The position numbers were made by a program, and so were the translations under genes. Positions 35,635 to 40,624 of a stretch of 64,000 bases of DNA are shown in pieces. The first letter of the stretch is position 1. Each line of letters opens with the position of its first letter. Source of the stretch: Cohnella sp. AR92 (GTDB taxonomy: Bacteria > Bacillota > Bacilli > Paenibacillales > Paenibacillaceae); the NCBI RefSeq assembly GCF_003990975.1, contig NZ_RZJR01000010.1, forward strand, positions 62,001 to 126,000, read 5' to 3'. The notes under the pieces were generated by a model. The model worked only from the letters and a program-made list of their open reading frames with translations, did not search any database and was not told the origin of the DNA.

Positions 35635-37560
35635 ATGACGGCAATAGCTGGAATCGTTGCGGATAACGAACCCGTCTCTAGCGAGGCGGCGGAGAAGATG
35701 ATGGAGGCGCTCGGCAGATACCCTTCCGATCAGGTGCGAACCTGGCACAACGGGTCTGTGTTCCTGGGCTGCCACGCGCAATGGTTCACGCCCGAGTCGG
35801 TGCAGGACCGGCAGCCGTGCGGCAATCGTCGGCACGGGGCGGTGATTACGGCTGACGCGATCATCGACAATCGGGAGGAGCTGTTTAACCGGCTTCGGAT
35901 CGAGCATGCCCTTCGGAAGCGGATGACGGACAGCGAATTGATTCTAGAGTCTTACCTCCAATGGGGAGAGGAGGCTCCGAAGTCTATCATCGGAGACTTC
36001 GCCTTCGTCCTATGGGACGGTCGGAGACGCCGATTGTTCGGCGCTCGCGATCTGGCGGGGAGCCGGACGCTGTATTATGCTCATCGTCCGGGGCGGTTCG
36101 CTTTCTGCACGGTGATGAATCCGCTGTTCGCCGTGCCCGGCGTCCGTCGGGAACGGAACGAAGCTTGGCTGGCCGAGTTTCTCGCGATCCCGATCGTCCT
36201 GGACACGATCGACGTTCGCTCCACGGTGTACCGCGATATCGAACAGCTTCCCCCGGCTCATTCCTTTGTCTACGAGAACGGCCGTCTAAAGATCGACCGC
36301 TACGGAACGCTGGCGGCCGATGTGCCGAAGTTGAAGCTGAAGTCGAACGGCGACTATGAAGAGGCTTTCCGCGAGGTGTTCCGGGAAGCCGTGACGTCGA
36401 AGCTCCGAACCCACCGGAAAGTCGGCGCAAGCCTAAGCGGAGGGCTGGATTCGGGGGCCGTCGTCAGCTTCGCGGCGGGGCCGCTGCGAAGGGAAGGCAA
36501 GACGCTGCACACGTACAGCTTCGTTCCCCGTCCGGACTTTGCGGATTGGACCCCGAACGGGATGACGGCGGACGAGAGGCCTTATATCCAGTCGGTCGTT
36601 GACCATGTGGGTCATCTAACCCACGCCAACATGGACTTCCCGGATCGGAACCCGTACGAAGAGATCGACGATCTGCTCGAATGGATGGAGACCCCCTACA
36701 AATTTTTTGAAAATTCGTACTGGTTCAAAGGAATCCTCGAACAAGCGGGCAAGCACGATGTCGGCATCCTGTTGAACGGCGGAAACGGCAACTACAGCAT
36801 CTCGTGGGGACCGGCCCTGGATTACTACGCCCGGCTCCTGCGCAGGCTGCGCTGGGTACGCCTTCATCGCGAGCTGCGACAATACGGAAGACGGATGCGG
36901 CTCGGAAGATCGATCCTGCTTCCGCACATTGCCAAGCTTGCTTTCCCGTTCCGCTCATCCCAGCCGATGCCGAACGACATTCCCCTGCTGATCCATCCGG
37001 AGCTGGCGGAACGCACCGGCGTCTTCGAAAGGCTGAAGGGCCATGATGTCGGGCTAAGCGACCTCCGGATGGACGACTTCGACGCGAGAACGGATCAGTT
37101 CGACAACCTGTCGATCCTGAACCATCAGGGGACGTCATCGACGAAGCTGTCGCTGCGGTACGCCGTTCGCGAGAGGGACCCGACCGTGGATCCGAGAGTC
37201 GTTCGCTTCTGCTTATCCGTGCCGGTCGAGCAGTACGTTCAGAACGGCATGGATCGCGCTCTCGTGCGGAGGGCGACCGAGCATTATCTGCCCGATAAGA
37301 TCCGGCTCAACCAACGCGTTCGGGGCGTGCAGGGGGCAGATTGGATCCATCGGGTGATCCCGTTATGGGGCAGGATCGCGGAGGAACTGGACAGGCTGTG
37401 CCGCGATCCCCAAGCCGGGCACTATCTGAACGTGAAGCAGATTCGCGCTTCTATGGCGGCTATCGGGGACCTGCCGCGGCCGGAGCAGGCCTATGACCGG
37501 CATGCGAGACTGCTCATGCAGAGCCTGATCGCGTATCGCTTTATCCGGCAAGGCTCCTGA
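35635..37560 (+). CDS. Lasso peptide macrolactam synthetase (asparagine synthase-like C protein)
   Basis: Cyclase of 641 residues that should adenylate the ring Asp side chain of the precursor and close the macrolactam with Gly1. The N-terminal glutaminase-like half begins MTAIAGIV, where asparagine synthetases have a catalytic Cys at position 2; its loss is typical of lasso cyclases. The ATP-pyrophosphatase half carries SLSGGLDSGAVVSF (SGGLDS at 268-273) and later NQRVRGVQGADW and RFCLSVPVEQYVQNGMDRAL. The ATG is placed at 35635 before TAIAG. The gene lies 27 bp upstream of the precursor gene, an order with the cyclase first. Confidence 0.88.
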   Translation: MTAIAGIVADNEPVSSEAAEKMMEALGRYPSDQVRTWHNGSVFLGCHAQWFTPESVQDRQPCGNRRHGAVITADAIIDNREELFNRLRIEHALRKRMTDSELILESYLQWGEEAPKSIIGDFAFVLWDGRRRRLFGARDLAGSRTLYYAHRPGRFAFCTVMNPLFAVPGVRRERNEAWLAEFLAIPIVLDTIDVRSTVYRDIEQLPPAHSFVYENGRLKIDRYGTLAADVPKLKLKSNGDYEEAFREVFREAVTSKLRTHRKVGASLSGGLDSGAVVSFAAGPLRREGKTLHTYSFVPRPDFADWTPNGMTADERPYIQSVVDHVGHLTHANMDFPDRNPYEEIDDLLEWMETPYKFFENSYWFKGILEQAGKHDVGILLNGGNGNYSISWGPALDYYARLLRRLRWVRLHRELRQYGRRMRLGRSILLPHIAKLAFPFRSSQPMPNDIPLLIHPELAERTGVFERLKGHDVGLSDLRMDDFDARTDQFDNLSILNHQGTSSTKLSLRYAVRERDPTVDPRVVRFCLSVPVEQYVQNGMDRALVRRATEHYLPDKIRLNQRVRGVQGADWIHRVIPLWGRIAEELDRLCRDPQAGHYLNVKQIRASMAAIGDLPRPEQAYDRHARLLMQSLIAYRFIRQGS

Positions 37561-37587
37561 AGCACCGACCGAAAGGAGGTGAGACAG

Positions 37588-37731
37588 ATGAAGAAAGAGT
37601 GGAACCAACCGACTCTCGAAGTTCTGGACGTCAGCCAGACGTTCGGCGGCCCGCACGGCTTGTTCCCGGACCGCAACGGCAAAGGCGGGAACAACGGCCA
37701 TCCTCATGCTCCGCTTCCTCAAGAATCCTAA
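37588..37731 (+). CDS. Lasso peptide precursor, paeninodin-type
   Basis: A 47-residue gene starting 8 nt behind the strong site AAAGGAGGTGA. The leader MKKEWNQPTLEVLDVSQTF has the W/YxxPxLxxL recognition pattern for an RRE protein and Thr18 at position -2, the hallmark of lasso leaders. The predicted 28-residue core starts GGPHGLFPD: Gly1 and Asp9 can form a nine-residue ring, leaving a Gly/Asn/His/Pro-rich tail. The core ends in PLPQES with a C-terminal Ser, as in paeninodin, whose terminal Ser is phosphorylated by an HPr-kinase-like enzyme; such a kinase is the next gene. Core boundaries are inferred from family rules. Confidence 0.88.
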   Translation: MKKEWNQPTLEVLDVSQTFGGPHGLFPDRNGKGGNNGHPHAPLPQES

Positions 37732-37856
37732 GAGGTGAACGAATGGCCATATCGGAGGGTCCTCCTGCCTGCATGGGATAGGATAGGGCCCTTCTTTTGT
37801 CGGAAAACAGCTCCCGCGTGCCGGGACTTTACATACAGGCAGGAGAGGTGAGGTAG

Positions 37857-38795
37857 ATGACAGCAGCGGCGGCGCCCGTTCGATACACCGCATTCGGCTT
37901 GCGGATAAGAAGCGAATATCCTCTGCCCGAGCTGTTGCGGACCACGGAACAGGAAGGCGAACCCGATGTCGAGATCGCGATTGGAGACTTGTCCGGGGCT
38001 TGGAACCGATACGGGGGGCCGGACGATTATTATGCTTACCCGGACGATGAATTCTTGTTCCGCGTCCCCGAAGTTGCCATCTTCGGAGTTCGCGGCGGCA
38101 AGCATATAACCGTGTCTCCGTTCGCCGAAGCGGAGGAGAAGAGCATTCGCCTCTATCTGCTGGGGACGTGCATGGGCTCCATTCTGATGCAGCGCGGGAC
38201 GCTGCCCCTTCACGGAAGCGCGGTGGAGATCAACGGACGGGCCTACGCGTTCGTCGGAGAATCGGGGGCGGGGAAGTCCACGCTGGCTCGGGCCTTCTTG
38301 AGCCGCGGCTATCGGCTTCTGAGCGACGACGTCATCGCGGTATCGCAAAGCGCGAATGGAGGCTTCCCCATCGTCATGCCCGCCTACCCTCAGCAGAAGC
38401 TGTGGCGGGAGAGCATGGACCGGCTTGGCGTGGAGCCCCGCGGCTCCCGTCATTTGTACGAATCCAAGTATGCCGTCCCCGTCGCGTCCGGCTTCGCCGC
38501 GGAAGCCCTGCCCTTAGACGGGATCTTCGAGCTCGGCAAGACGGAGGGGAGAGAGGCGGAGCTCTCGCCCTATCGGGGGCTCGAACGGCTGGCGATTCTT
38601 CGGCTGCATACGTACCGTCCTTTTCTGATCCCGCGTCTAACCGGAGAACAGTGGCATCTGTCGGCTATTGCCGGGCTCTCGAGTCAGGTCGATCTGTATC
38701 GCATGCGAAGGCCTTCGGCCGGATTCTCCGCGTACGAGCTGGCGGAACGAGTCTTGGAGACGGTTCTTGAAGGAGAGAAGGTCATGCGCGGATGA
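37857..38795 (+). CDS. HPr-kinase-like lasso peptide kinase
   Basis: Protein of 312 residues with a C-terminal HPr kinase-like catalytic domain. The P-loop is AFVGESGAGKSTLARAFLSR (Gly134-Thr142), with LLSDDVIAV and LHGSAVEINGRAY around it. In Paenibacillus the equivalent enzyme (PadeK) phosphorylates the C-terminal Ser of the paeninodin precursor. The precursor here ends in Ser, which supports the same reaction. The start is ATG behind AGGAGAGGTGAGG. The stop overlaps the start of the exporter gene by 4 bp. Confidence 0.87.
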   Translation: MTAAAAPVRYTAFGLRIRSEYPLPELLRTTEQEGEPDVEIAIGDLSGAWNRYGGPDDYYAYPDDEFLFRVPEVAIFGVRGGKHITVSPFAEAEEKSIRLYLLGTCMGSILMQRGTLPLHGSAVEINGRAYAFVGESGAGKSTLARAFLSRGYRLLSDDVIAVSQSANGGFPIVMPAYPQQKLWRESMDRLGVEPRGSRHLYESKYAVPVASGFAAEALPLDGIFELGKTEGREAELSPYRGLERLAILRLHTYRPFLIPRLTGEQWHLSAIAGLSSQVDLYRMRRPSAGFSAYELAERVLETVLEGEKVMRG

Positions 38796-40624
38796 GAAGC
38801 GTCGAGAAGCTGGGAATCGGGCCTGTGCTTGTCTACCTGAAGCAGCTTCACGTCTTTGCGGGGCGAAGGTTGTATTTGAATCTGATAGGAACCATGGTCG
38901 TCAGCATGCTCGAAGGGATCGGAATTTTCCTTCTGGCTCCCATGCTGAGCCTGATCGGGCTGATGGATTCGTCCGCGGGCGGCATTCCTTTGCTCTCCGC
39001 CATCGCAGAACCGCTTCGGAAGCTGCCTTCCGACGGTCAGCTGCCTGCCGTGCTTGCCGTTTTCCTTGTTCTTGTATTGGGCCAAGGGCTGCTGCAGCGG
39101 CAGCTGACCGTCCGGAATTCCGAATTGGAGCAAGGCTTTATCCGGCAGCTCCGGATGAACATCTATAAGGGACTGTTGCAGTCGAACTGGTCGTTCTACT
39201 TGCGGCATCGCAAGTCTGATTTTATCCATCATGCGACTTCCGAGCTGCCCCGGGTGAGCTTCGGCGTGTTCATGTTCCTGCAGCTATTGACCAATATCCT
39301 GTTCACGCTGATCCAGATCGGCTTCGCGCTATGGCTGTCGGTCCCGCTCACGTTGGCGGTGCTGTTGTGCGGGGCTGCTCTTGTCGTCTTCTCCCGTTCC
39401 AAGGTGAGCCGATCGAGAGCGATCGGACAAGAGACGACCGAGCTGATGCAGCTCTACTTGGCCGGGATGACCGATCACTTGGGCGGCATCAAGGATATCA
39501 AGAGCAACCGGATGGAGAAGCCTCATCTGGCCTGGTTCCAAGCTCTGTGCGGCCGGCTGGAGAGCAATATCGTTCAGTTCACGCGGTTGCAGTCGGCCTC
39601 CCGATTCCATTACAAAGCGGCCTCGAGCCTCCTCATCGCGGGCTTCGCTTATTTCGCCTTCGCGGTTGTCCAAGTCCAGGCGGAGACTCTCTTGTTCATC
39701 GTTCTTATTTTCTCGCGCTTGTGGCCGAAGTTCTCGGCGCTGCAGTCCAATCTGGAGCAGCTCGCCCAGACGCTTCCCGCTTTCCGGAACCTTGGGGAGA
39801 TGCAGCGGGAGGTCGAGGCTTCCCGGGAACCGGAGCTGCCCGAGCCGGGGCACCCGGATGCCGGGCGCTCCGTCACACAAGGCTTCGAGCTGCGGGACGT
39901 CTTCTTCCGGTATGACCTCGAGCAGTCCAGCTATGCTCTTCAAGCGGTCAATCTGCGCATTCCGGCCAATCGGATGACGGCCATCGTCGGGCGATCGGGC
40001 GCGGGGAAGAGCACCTTGATCGATATGCTGATCGGGCTCATCCAGCCGGAGCGAGGGCAGGTGCTCGTCGACGGCAAGCCTCTGGAAGCGAGCGATTCGT
40101 ATGAGCTGAGGCGGGCCGTGAGCTACGTCTCGCAGGATCCGTTCCTGTTCCATGAGAGCGTGAGGTACAATCTATCCATTGCCGCGCCGGACGCGAGCGA
40201 AGACAAGATCTGGGAGGCGCTGCGTTTCGCCGCGGCGGATACGTTCGTCAAGAAGCTTCCGCAGGGGCTCGACACGATGCTGGGAGACCGGGGGGTTCGT
40301 CTATCCGGAGGGGAGAGGCAACGGATCGTGCTGGCGAGAGCGATCCTGCGCCGGCCCTCCATTCTTATTCTGGACGAAGCGACCAGCGCGCTGGACAGCG
40401 AGCACGAAGCCAGCATCCAGCAAGCGCTGGAACGGCTGAAGGGGAGCATGACCCTTATCGTGATCGCCCATCGTCTGTCGACGATTCGGGGAGCGGATCA
40501 GGTCGTCGTGCTGGACGACGGAACCATCGTGCAGCGAGGGGGCTATACGGAGCTTGCCGACGACCGGAACGGCTTGTTCGGCAAGCTGCTGGCCTATCAG
40601 GCAGGAGCTAGAAAATCGAAGTAA
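38792..40624 (+). CDS. ABC transporter, lasso peptide exporter (D protein)
   Basis: Half-transporter of 610 residues with a fused membrane domain (about 1-330) and nucleotide-binding domain (about 370-610). Motifs seen are Walker A IVGRSGAGKSTLIDM, signature LSGGERQRIVLARAIL and Walker B ILILDEATSALDSE. There is no N-terminal C39 peptidase, so it exports the mature peptide rather than trimming the leader. It should also give self-immunity. Translational coupling to the kinase gene supports a single lasso operon that ends here. Confidence 0.9.
   Translation: MRSVEKLGIGPVLVYLKQLHVFAGRRLYLNLIGTMVVSMLEGIGIFLLAPMLSLIGLMDSSAGGIPLLSAIAEPLRKLPSDGQLPAVLAVFLVLVLGQGLLQRQLTVRNSELEQGFIRQLRMNIYKGLLQSNWSFYLRHRKSDFIHHATSELPRVSFGVFMFLQLLTNILFTLIQIGFALWLSVPLTLAVLLCGAALVVFSRSKVSRSRAIGQETTELMQLYLAGMTDHLGGIKDIKSNRMEKPHLAWFQALCGRLESNIVQFTRLQSASRFHYKAASSLLIAGFAYFAFAVVQVQAETLLFIVLIFSRLWPKFSALQSNLEQLAQTLPAFRNLGEMQREVEASREPELPEPGHPDAGRSVTQGFELRDVFFRYDLEQSSYALQAVNLRIPANRMTAIVGRSGAGKSTLIDMLIGLIQPERGQVLVDGKPLEASDSYELRRAVSYVSQDPFLFHESVRYNLSIAAPDASEDKIWEALRFAAADTFVKKLPQGLDTMLGDRGVRLSGGERQRIVLARAILRRPSILILDEATSALDSEHEASIQQALERLKGSMTLIVIAHRLSTIRGADQVVVLDDGTIVQRGGYTELADDRNGLFGKLLAYQAGARKSK

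What the first reader, a model, noticed from the sequence alone, without database searches (positions are those of the whole stretch)
35635..40624. Reduced lasso peptide cluster (C-A-K-D) without RRE protein or leader peptidase
Seen: cyclase, precursor, HPr-kinase-like enzyme and ABC exporter in tight order, with a 4-bp overlap between the last two. Known: lasso maturation in Firmicutes needs B1 (RRE, leader binding) and B2 (transglutaminase-like leader protease). Neither is encoded within the cluster, or among the recognisable genes on either side of it. Either B1/B2 are supplied from elsewhere in the genome, another protein replaces them, or the cluster is no longer productive. The cyclase-first gene order is also noteworthy.
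Basis: partly seen in the sequence, partly recalled or inferred. Interest (0 to 1): 0.85.

Follow-up and report, generated by a model that had tools for sequence, protein, structure and literature searches.

The report
Lasso peptide cluster borrowing distant enzymes
This bacterium keeps the genes for one knotted (lasso) peptide without the two genes that cut off its leader, and very probably borrows them from a second, distant lasso locus, an arrangement that recurs in related bacteria and that gene-cluster searches which expect all parts side by side could overlook.

Summary
In detail: window 35635-40624 is a paeninodin-family lasso locus, C-A-K-D, with no B1 or B2. The genome has one lasso B2, on contig C19 beside a lasso B1, in a second lasso locus (sulfotransferase-C-A-K-B1-B2-nucleotidyltransferase). 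That locus has no exporter, and the window's D is the only lasso-type exporter found, so the loci are complementary halves. In another genus the same two gene sets form one tandem cluster with a single B1-B2. In the window's genus (inferred Cohnella), 11 of 37 genomes have the window-type module and all 11 have the B1-B2 locus; 0 of 23 genomes without that locus have the module. The module sits at different sites, is under purifying selection and keeps its core peptide. Family-wide, 22 of 150 listed cyclase places lie more than 15 kb from any B2; all 19 genomes concerned have B2 elsewhere. Best reading: a module that depends on B1/B2 in trans, not a degraded cluster. Trans maturation is inferred, not shown. 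Cyclase-first order is normal here. New variant of a known kind; no published description found in the papers searched.

The parts
35635..37560 (+). C1: lasso macrolactam synthetase (asparagine-synthetase-like cyclase), 641 aa
   Evidence: NF033535 352 bits, PF00733, PF13537; in a 27-row cyclase clade (SH-aLRT 99), none of whose members is the only cyclase beside a B1-B2 pair
37588..37731 (+). A1: lasso precursor, 47 aa; leader MKKEWNQPTLEVLDVSQTF (37588-37644), core GGPHGLFPDRNGKGGNNGHPHAPLPQES (37645-37728); Thr at -2, predicted G1-D9 ring, C-terminal Ser (presumed target of K). Cleavage site and ring are predicted
   Evidence: NF033524 50.3 bits; precursors of relatives compared; Thr(-2) rule from PMC10368454 (passages)
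37857..38795 (+). K1: HPr-kinase-like lasso kinase, 312 aa; H119, K140, D157, D158 present
   Evidence: PF07475; these four residues are at least 95% conserved over 59 rows; taken to be the His-Lys-Asp-Asp motif reported for lasso kinases (PMC9266682, passage)
38792..40624 (+). D1: ABC exporter, 610 aa; the only lasso-type D found in the genome (next match 31% identity)
   Evidence: PF00664 and PF00005; genome search, 72 of 171 candidates scored in G000
38792..38795 (+). 4-bp ATGA overlap between K1 stop and D1 start
   Evidence: sequence

Best explanation
The window locus is one half of a two-peptide lasso system whose genes now lie at two separate places. Shown: the window half (Y) has C1-A1-K1-D1; the other half (X, contig C19) has sulfotransferase-C2-A2-K2-B1-B2-nucleotidyltransferase; the genome has one lasso B2 and one lasso B1 over cut-off, both in X, and one lasso-type exporter, in Y. 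Inferred: B1 from X binds the leader of A1 (W..P.LE.LDV..T, the same motif as in A2) and presents it to B2, which cuts after the residue that follows Thr(-2); C1 closes the G1-D9 ring; K1 phosphorylates the C-terminal Ser; D1 exports the product and, since X has no exporter here, perhaps the X product too. The ancestral form is probably a tandem cluster with one B1-B2 pair; the B-less module then moved out, and in this genus it is found only in genomes that keep X.
For: One B2 in the genome, next to B1, in a second lasso locus. In another genus both gene sets form one tandem cluster, ST-C2-A2-K2-B1-B2-NT-C1-A1-K1-D1 with CysC behind: 7 loci with this full order (L025, L026, L084-L088) and an eighth (L028) in which K2 and CysC were not seen; in G109 of the same genus the two are still adjacent. 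In 37 genus genomes, 11 have Y and all 11 have X; 0 of 23 without X have Y (Fisher p 4e-7; 1.6e-6 if the divergent G203 locus is counted as X; neither corrected for kinship). Four genomes with the tandem form (G045, G066, G077, G121) have one B2 for two cyclases and two or more precursors, so one pair must serve both if both peptides are made. G150 has a single system, with NT-B1-B2-D and C-A-K about 17 kb apart. 105 of 105 genomes with a paeninodin precursor have a B2 over cut-off, against 8 of 92 without one. Y cores are conserved and pairwise dN/dS of C1, K1 and D1 is about 0.13-0.27. PadeB1 and PadeB2 suffice for leader removal without PadeC (PMC5067487, passages).
Against: No expression, binding or mass-spectrometry data; a shared leader motif is compatibility, not proof. 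The assembly is 36 contigs, though 99.98% complete. X here has no exporter while all 12 other X loci of the genus that reach that far have one, which could mean that X is decaying in this species, though the X genes read are open frames. K2 is under Pfam's cut-off. The co-occurrence counts are not independent of phylogeny. GC differs a little (cluster 0.605, X 0.633, window 0.552).
Confidence: 0.85

Rival explanations
1. The window cluster is a decaying remnant that lost B1 and B2 and makes no peptide.
For: B1 and B2 are absent locally.
Against: The same C-A-K-D content is found in 9 other genus genomes (6; G208, G205 and G201, the last two with frame breaks in their assemblies); purifying selection on C1, K1 and D1 and a conserved core; co-occurrence with X in 11 of 11.
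Confidence: 0.06
2. Another host protein (a different RRE or protease) processes A1 without X.
For: Another PqqD-like protein exists on C5 beside an HprK-like protein, a 182-aa protein and an ABC transporter.
Against: It is weak for the Bacillales lasso B1 model (31-33 bits in NF033536, cut-off 80) and lies near sugar-nucleotide genes (read from sequence); the genome has one PF13471 protein, in X. Other protease families were not searched.
Confidence: 0.06
3. The contig C19 is a contaminant, so B1/B2 are not in the same cell.
For: Fragmented assembly; C19 is a separate 62-kb contig.
Against: Contamination 0.48%; X has orthologs in 13 other genus genomes, with the same large gene upstream in 13 of 13 and the UDP-glucose dehydrogenase-like gene in 12 of 13 (the 13th contig is too short), the nearest of the latter (88%) in G125, a genome that also has Y.
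Confidence: 0.03

Closest known systems
Paeninodin cluster (padeCAB1B2D with padeK), Paenibacillus dendritiformis C454
   Same: Precursor family, cyclase-first order, HPr-like kinase, C-terminal Ser, Thr(-2), ABC exporter
   Different: B1 and B2 sit in the paeninodin cluster; here they are on another contig in another lasso locus
Firmicute lasso clusters with a leading sulfotransferase and a nucleotidyltransferase between B2 and D (Zhu et al. 2016, as told in PMC8498205, passage seen)
   Same: The X locus is of this type
   Different: X here has no D, and a separate module without B genes appears to depend on it
Citrulassin: lasso tailoring enzyme (PAD) encoded far from the cluster (PMC9266682, passage)
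   Same: A lasso step supplied from a distant gene
   Different: There a tailoring step; here the essential leader-removal pair, shared between two loci
Neobacillus driksii AT2.8 paeninodin cluster without nucleotidyltransferase and ABC transporter (PMC11705953, passage)
   Same: An incomplete paeninodin-type cluster in print
   Different: It lacks the exporter, like X here, not B1-B2; no partner locus is described in the passages seen

Membership tests
Paeninodin-family lasso peptide system | Precursor over the NF033524 cut-off | tested here: met
   50.3 bits against 27
Paeninodin-family lasso peptide system | Lasso-type cyclase gene next to the precursor | tested here: met
   NF033535 is the best match at 352 bits, though under its strict cut-off of 525; groups with other precursor-linked cyclases
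Paeninodin-family lasso peptide system | B1 (RRE) and B2 (leader peptidase) genes within the cluster | tested here: not met
   none in the window
Paeninodin-family lasso peptide system | B1 and B2 present in the genome | tested here: met
   C19: NF033536 120.2 bits (cut-off 80), NF033537 100.6 bits (cut-off 33)
Paeninodin-family lasso peptide system | Kinase with His-Lys-Asp-Asp and precursor with C-terminal Ser | tested here: met
Paeninodin-family lasso peptide system | Threaded lasso product | not testable with these tools
   needs mass spectrometry and NMR
Asparagine synthetase (glutamine-hydrolysing) | Cys directly after Met in the amidotransferase domain (recalled) | tested here: not met
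   N-terminus MTAIAG; TIGR01536 169.7 bits, under its cut-off of 267.1

The most novel reading that the evidence does not exclude
Paenibacillaceae carry a lineage of lasso modules (C-A-K-D or C-A-D) that has given up its own B1-B2, moves about the genome and relies on the B1-B2 of a separate partner locus; in some genomes B1 and B2 themselves have separated (G105, G129) or the B1-B2 locus has no cyclase and precursor of its own (G150). Lasso biosynthesis there would be a dispersed, combinatorial system rather than a set of self-contained clusters.
Probability: 0.7. Interest if true: 0.65.

Novelty: new variant of a known kind. Interest (0 to 1): 0.55.

Why it matters
Essential lasso maturation genes are normally taken to be clustered. 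It also offers natural cases of one B1-B2 pair serving two very different cores, useful for engineering, and a direct test of how far one RRE and peptidase can be shared.

Tried and rejected
Ordinary asparagine synthetase: rejected. A B1 or B2 missed in the window: rejected. Use of the C5 PqqD-like protein: unlikely. A remnant of the exporter in X: no room, since the nucleotidyltransferase and CysC reading frames end 15 bp apart. An empty insertion site for Y: not found; one flanking gene (shikimate kinase) was sought in 14 genomes and its 5 matches (45-57% identity) were not followed to a site. Promoter- and terminator-like sites: 1 and 7 against 1.5 and 4.5 in shuffles, uninformative. Solved structures: 5 distant asparagine-synthetase-like relatives. 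Searches for a published account of lasso clusters lacking B genes and served in trans: nothing fitting in the listings shown; some searches were broader, and passages of PMC5067487, PMC9266682, PMC10368454, PMC8498205, PMC11705953, PMC7829367, PMC10308117 and PMC11668882 were seen. The library lacks most subscription papers, and the primary paeninodin kinase paper was not held.

Full report
What is there. The window (C26:62001-126000 of a 6.02-Mb genome in 36 contigs) carries C1 35635-37560, A1 37588-37731, K1 37857-38795 and D1 38792-40624, all on the + strand. A1 is a paeninodin-family precursor (50.3 bits, cut-off 27), C1's best match is the lasso cyclase family (352 bits, under the strict cut-off of 525), K1 is HPr-kinase-like and D1 an ABC exporter.

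Where B1 and B2 are. PF13471 (B2 fold) gives one match in the genome, C19:34716-35072; PF05402 (PqqD/RRE) gives three: beside that B2 on C19, in what looks like a PQQ operon at C26:211150, and on C5. The C19 pair passes the lasso-specific cut-offs: NF033536 120.2 bits (80) and NF033537 100.6 bits (33). Around it (L005) lie, in order, a sulfotransferase, cyclase C2, precursor A2 (NF033524, 50.8 bits), kinase K2 (PF07475 24.3 bits, under the cut-off), B1, B2, a PF14907 nucleotidyltransferase, and then CysC on the other strand. No exporter lies there, and the best other match to D1 in the genome has 31% identity (72 of 171 candidates scored). So each locus lacks what the other has.

Same gene sets joined elsewhere. 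I read 20 loci from relatives and 34. In genus g2 the order is ST-C2-A2-K2-B1-B2-NT-C1-A1-K1-D1 followed by CysC (L025, L026, L084-L088; in L028 K2 and CysC were not seen): one B1-B2 and one exporter for two cyclases and two precursors. In G109, of the window's own genus, X with its own exporter D2 and C1-A1-K1 are still neighbours. In the other nine genus genomes with Y, Y (C-A-K-D) lies apart from X (another contig, or 2.8 Mb away in G156), and their X has an exporter D2. All 12 other X loci of the genus that reach that far have D2; the window's genome is the exception. Whether this X lost D2 or never had it is not settled; the tandem form of g2 has no exporter inside its X part either.

Co-occurrence. 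Of 37 genus genomes, 11 have Y: G000, G109, G117, G125, G156, G171, G178, G184, G201, G205 and G208 (Y frames of G201 and G205 are broken in the assembly). X (C2 at 67% identity or more, with sulfotransferase) is in those 11 and in G199, G200 and G210; G210's is cut by a contig end. Six more genomes have a B2 but no X (G052, G063, G083, G197, G203, G209; C2 at 50-54%), and none of them has Y; G203 has a divergent locus of the same gene order, outside the X clade in the tree. Fisher p 4e-7, or 1.6e-6 with G203 counted as X, uncorrected for kinship.

Mobility. X keeps its upstream neighbours in both genera. Y does not: G000, G184, G178 and G125 share no flanking gene (38% identity, 70 aa, E 1e-12) with each other or with the site used by G156, G171, G208, G205 and G201 (G117 shares that site's downstream genes; its contig ends upstream) (about 5-8 kb of flank, 15 kb in the window). 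With G109 that makes up to six sites. No transposase was seen among the eight window flank proteins scanned.

Family-wide. In 197 genomes of the family, 105 have a paeninodin-type precursor and all 105 have a B2 over cut-off; 8 of the other 92 do. The cyclase search listed 150 places in 95 genomes (of 98 with a match; the listing was cut). Of these, 128 lie within 15 kb of a B2 and 22, in 19 genomes, do not; every one of those 19 genomes has B2 elsewhere. I read all 22: ten are C-A-K-D, seven C-A-D, two C-A-K, one C-A, and two C-A-K-B1-D with B1 but no B2. NF033536 puts no lasso B1 near the other twenty. G117's locus lies about 1.9 kb from a contig end. In G105 a B1 without B2 (C1:1500223) and a B2 without B1 (C1:1614192) are 114 kb apart; G129 is alike. 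In G150 the only B1, B2 and lasso-type exporter seen (with NT) and the only C-A-K lie about 17 kb apart; in G011 K-B1-B2-D and C-A-K-D are about 35 kb apart.

Descent. In a tree of 71 cyclases (quick method, SH-aLRT only) the eight unbroken Y cyclases form one clade (100), inside a 27-row clade (99) made of Y, seven other B-less loci and twelve second modules of tandem clusters; none is the only cyclase beside a B1-B2 pair. The other six of the 13 other B-less rows lie elsewhere, so the state arose more than once. X cyclases of both genera group together (100). The exporters D1 and D2 are separate clades (100 each).

Is it alive? Y cores keep GGP[NH]G..PDRNGKG.NNG in the ten genus Y loci outside G109, and pairwise dN/dS is about 0.13-0.27 for C1, K1 and D1 over four or five loci each (Nei-Gojobori, dS 0.4-1.0); A1 is too short to weigh (0.06-0.74). 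B2 in X keeps C83 and H118, invariant over 34 rows.

Mechanism. Known: PadeB1 binds its leader at nanomolar affinity and B1 plus B2 cut it without the cyclase (PMC5067487, passages); PadeK acts on the C-terminal Ser of the precursor (PMC9266682, passages). Inferred: X B1-B2 do this for A1. Leaders of A1 and A2 of this genome share W..PTLE.LDV..T with the same spacing.

Limits. No wet-lab data. Counts are not independent of phylogeny. Absence from print rests in an open-licence library only.

Noticed in passing
L005 7825-19625 (C19): The B1-B2 lasso locus lies beside a UDP-glucose dehydrogenase-like gene, a 982-aa protein with CHB_HEX and weak GH42 matches, a NoeE-like sulfotransferase and an APS kinase (CysC), largely syntenic across two genera; a sulfated lasso product or a link to cell-surface sugar is possible.
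   Followed up: partly
window 37645-37728 and orthologs: The conserved Y core PD[RK]NGKG.NNG resembles a DxNGxG metal-binding loop; this is a resemblance from memory, untested.
   Followed up: no
L007 2603-9271 (C5): HprK-like protein, PqqD-like protein, 182-aa protein, ABC transporter and a nucleotidyltransferase-like gene near sugar-nucleotide genes; looks like a lasso-related peptide or polysaccharide system without a cyclase.
   Followed up: partly
L006 5024-8053 (C26:210-213 kb): What looks like a PQQ biosynthesis operon, with a PqqD domain; only the PqqD domain was matched by a tool.
   Followed up: no
L080, L081, L127, L129 (G105, G129): B1 and B2 of lasso clusters separated from each other, reciprocally missing in two clusters more than 100 kb apart.
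   Followed up: partly
L070, L073, L074, L076-L078, L082: Seven C-A-D loci also lack a recognisable kinase although the precursor keeps its C-terminal Ser, so the kinase too may act in trans.
   Followed up: no
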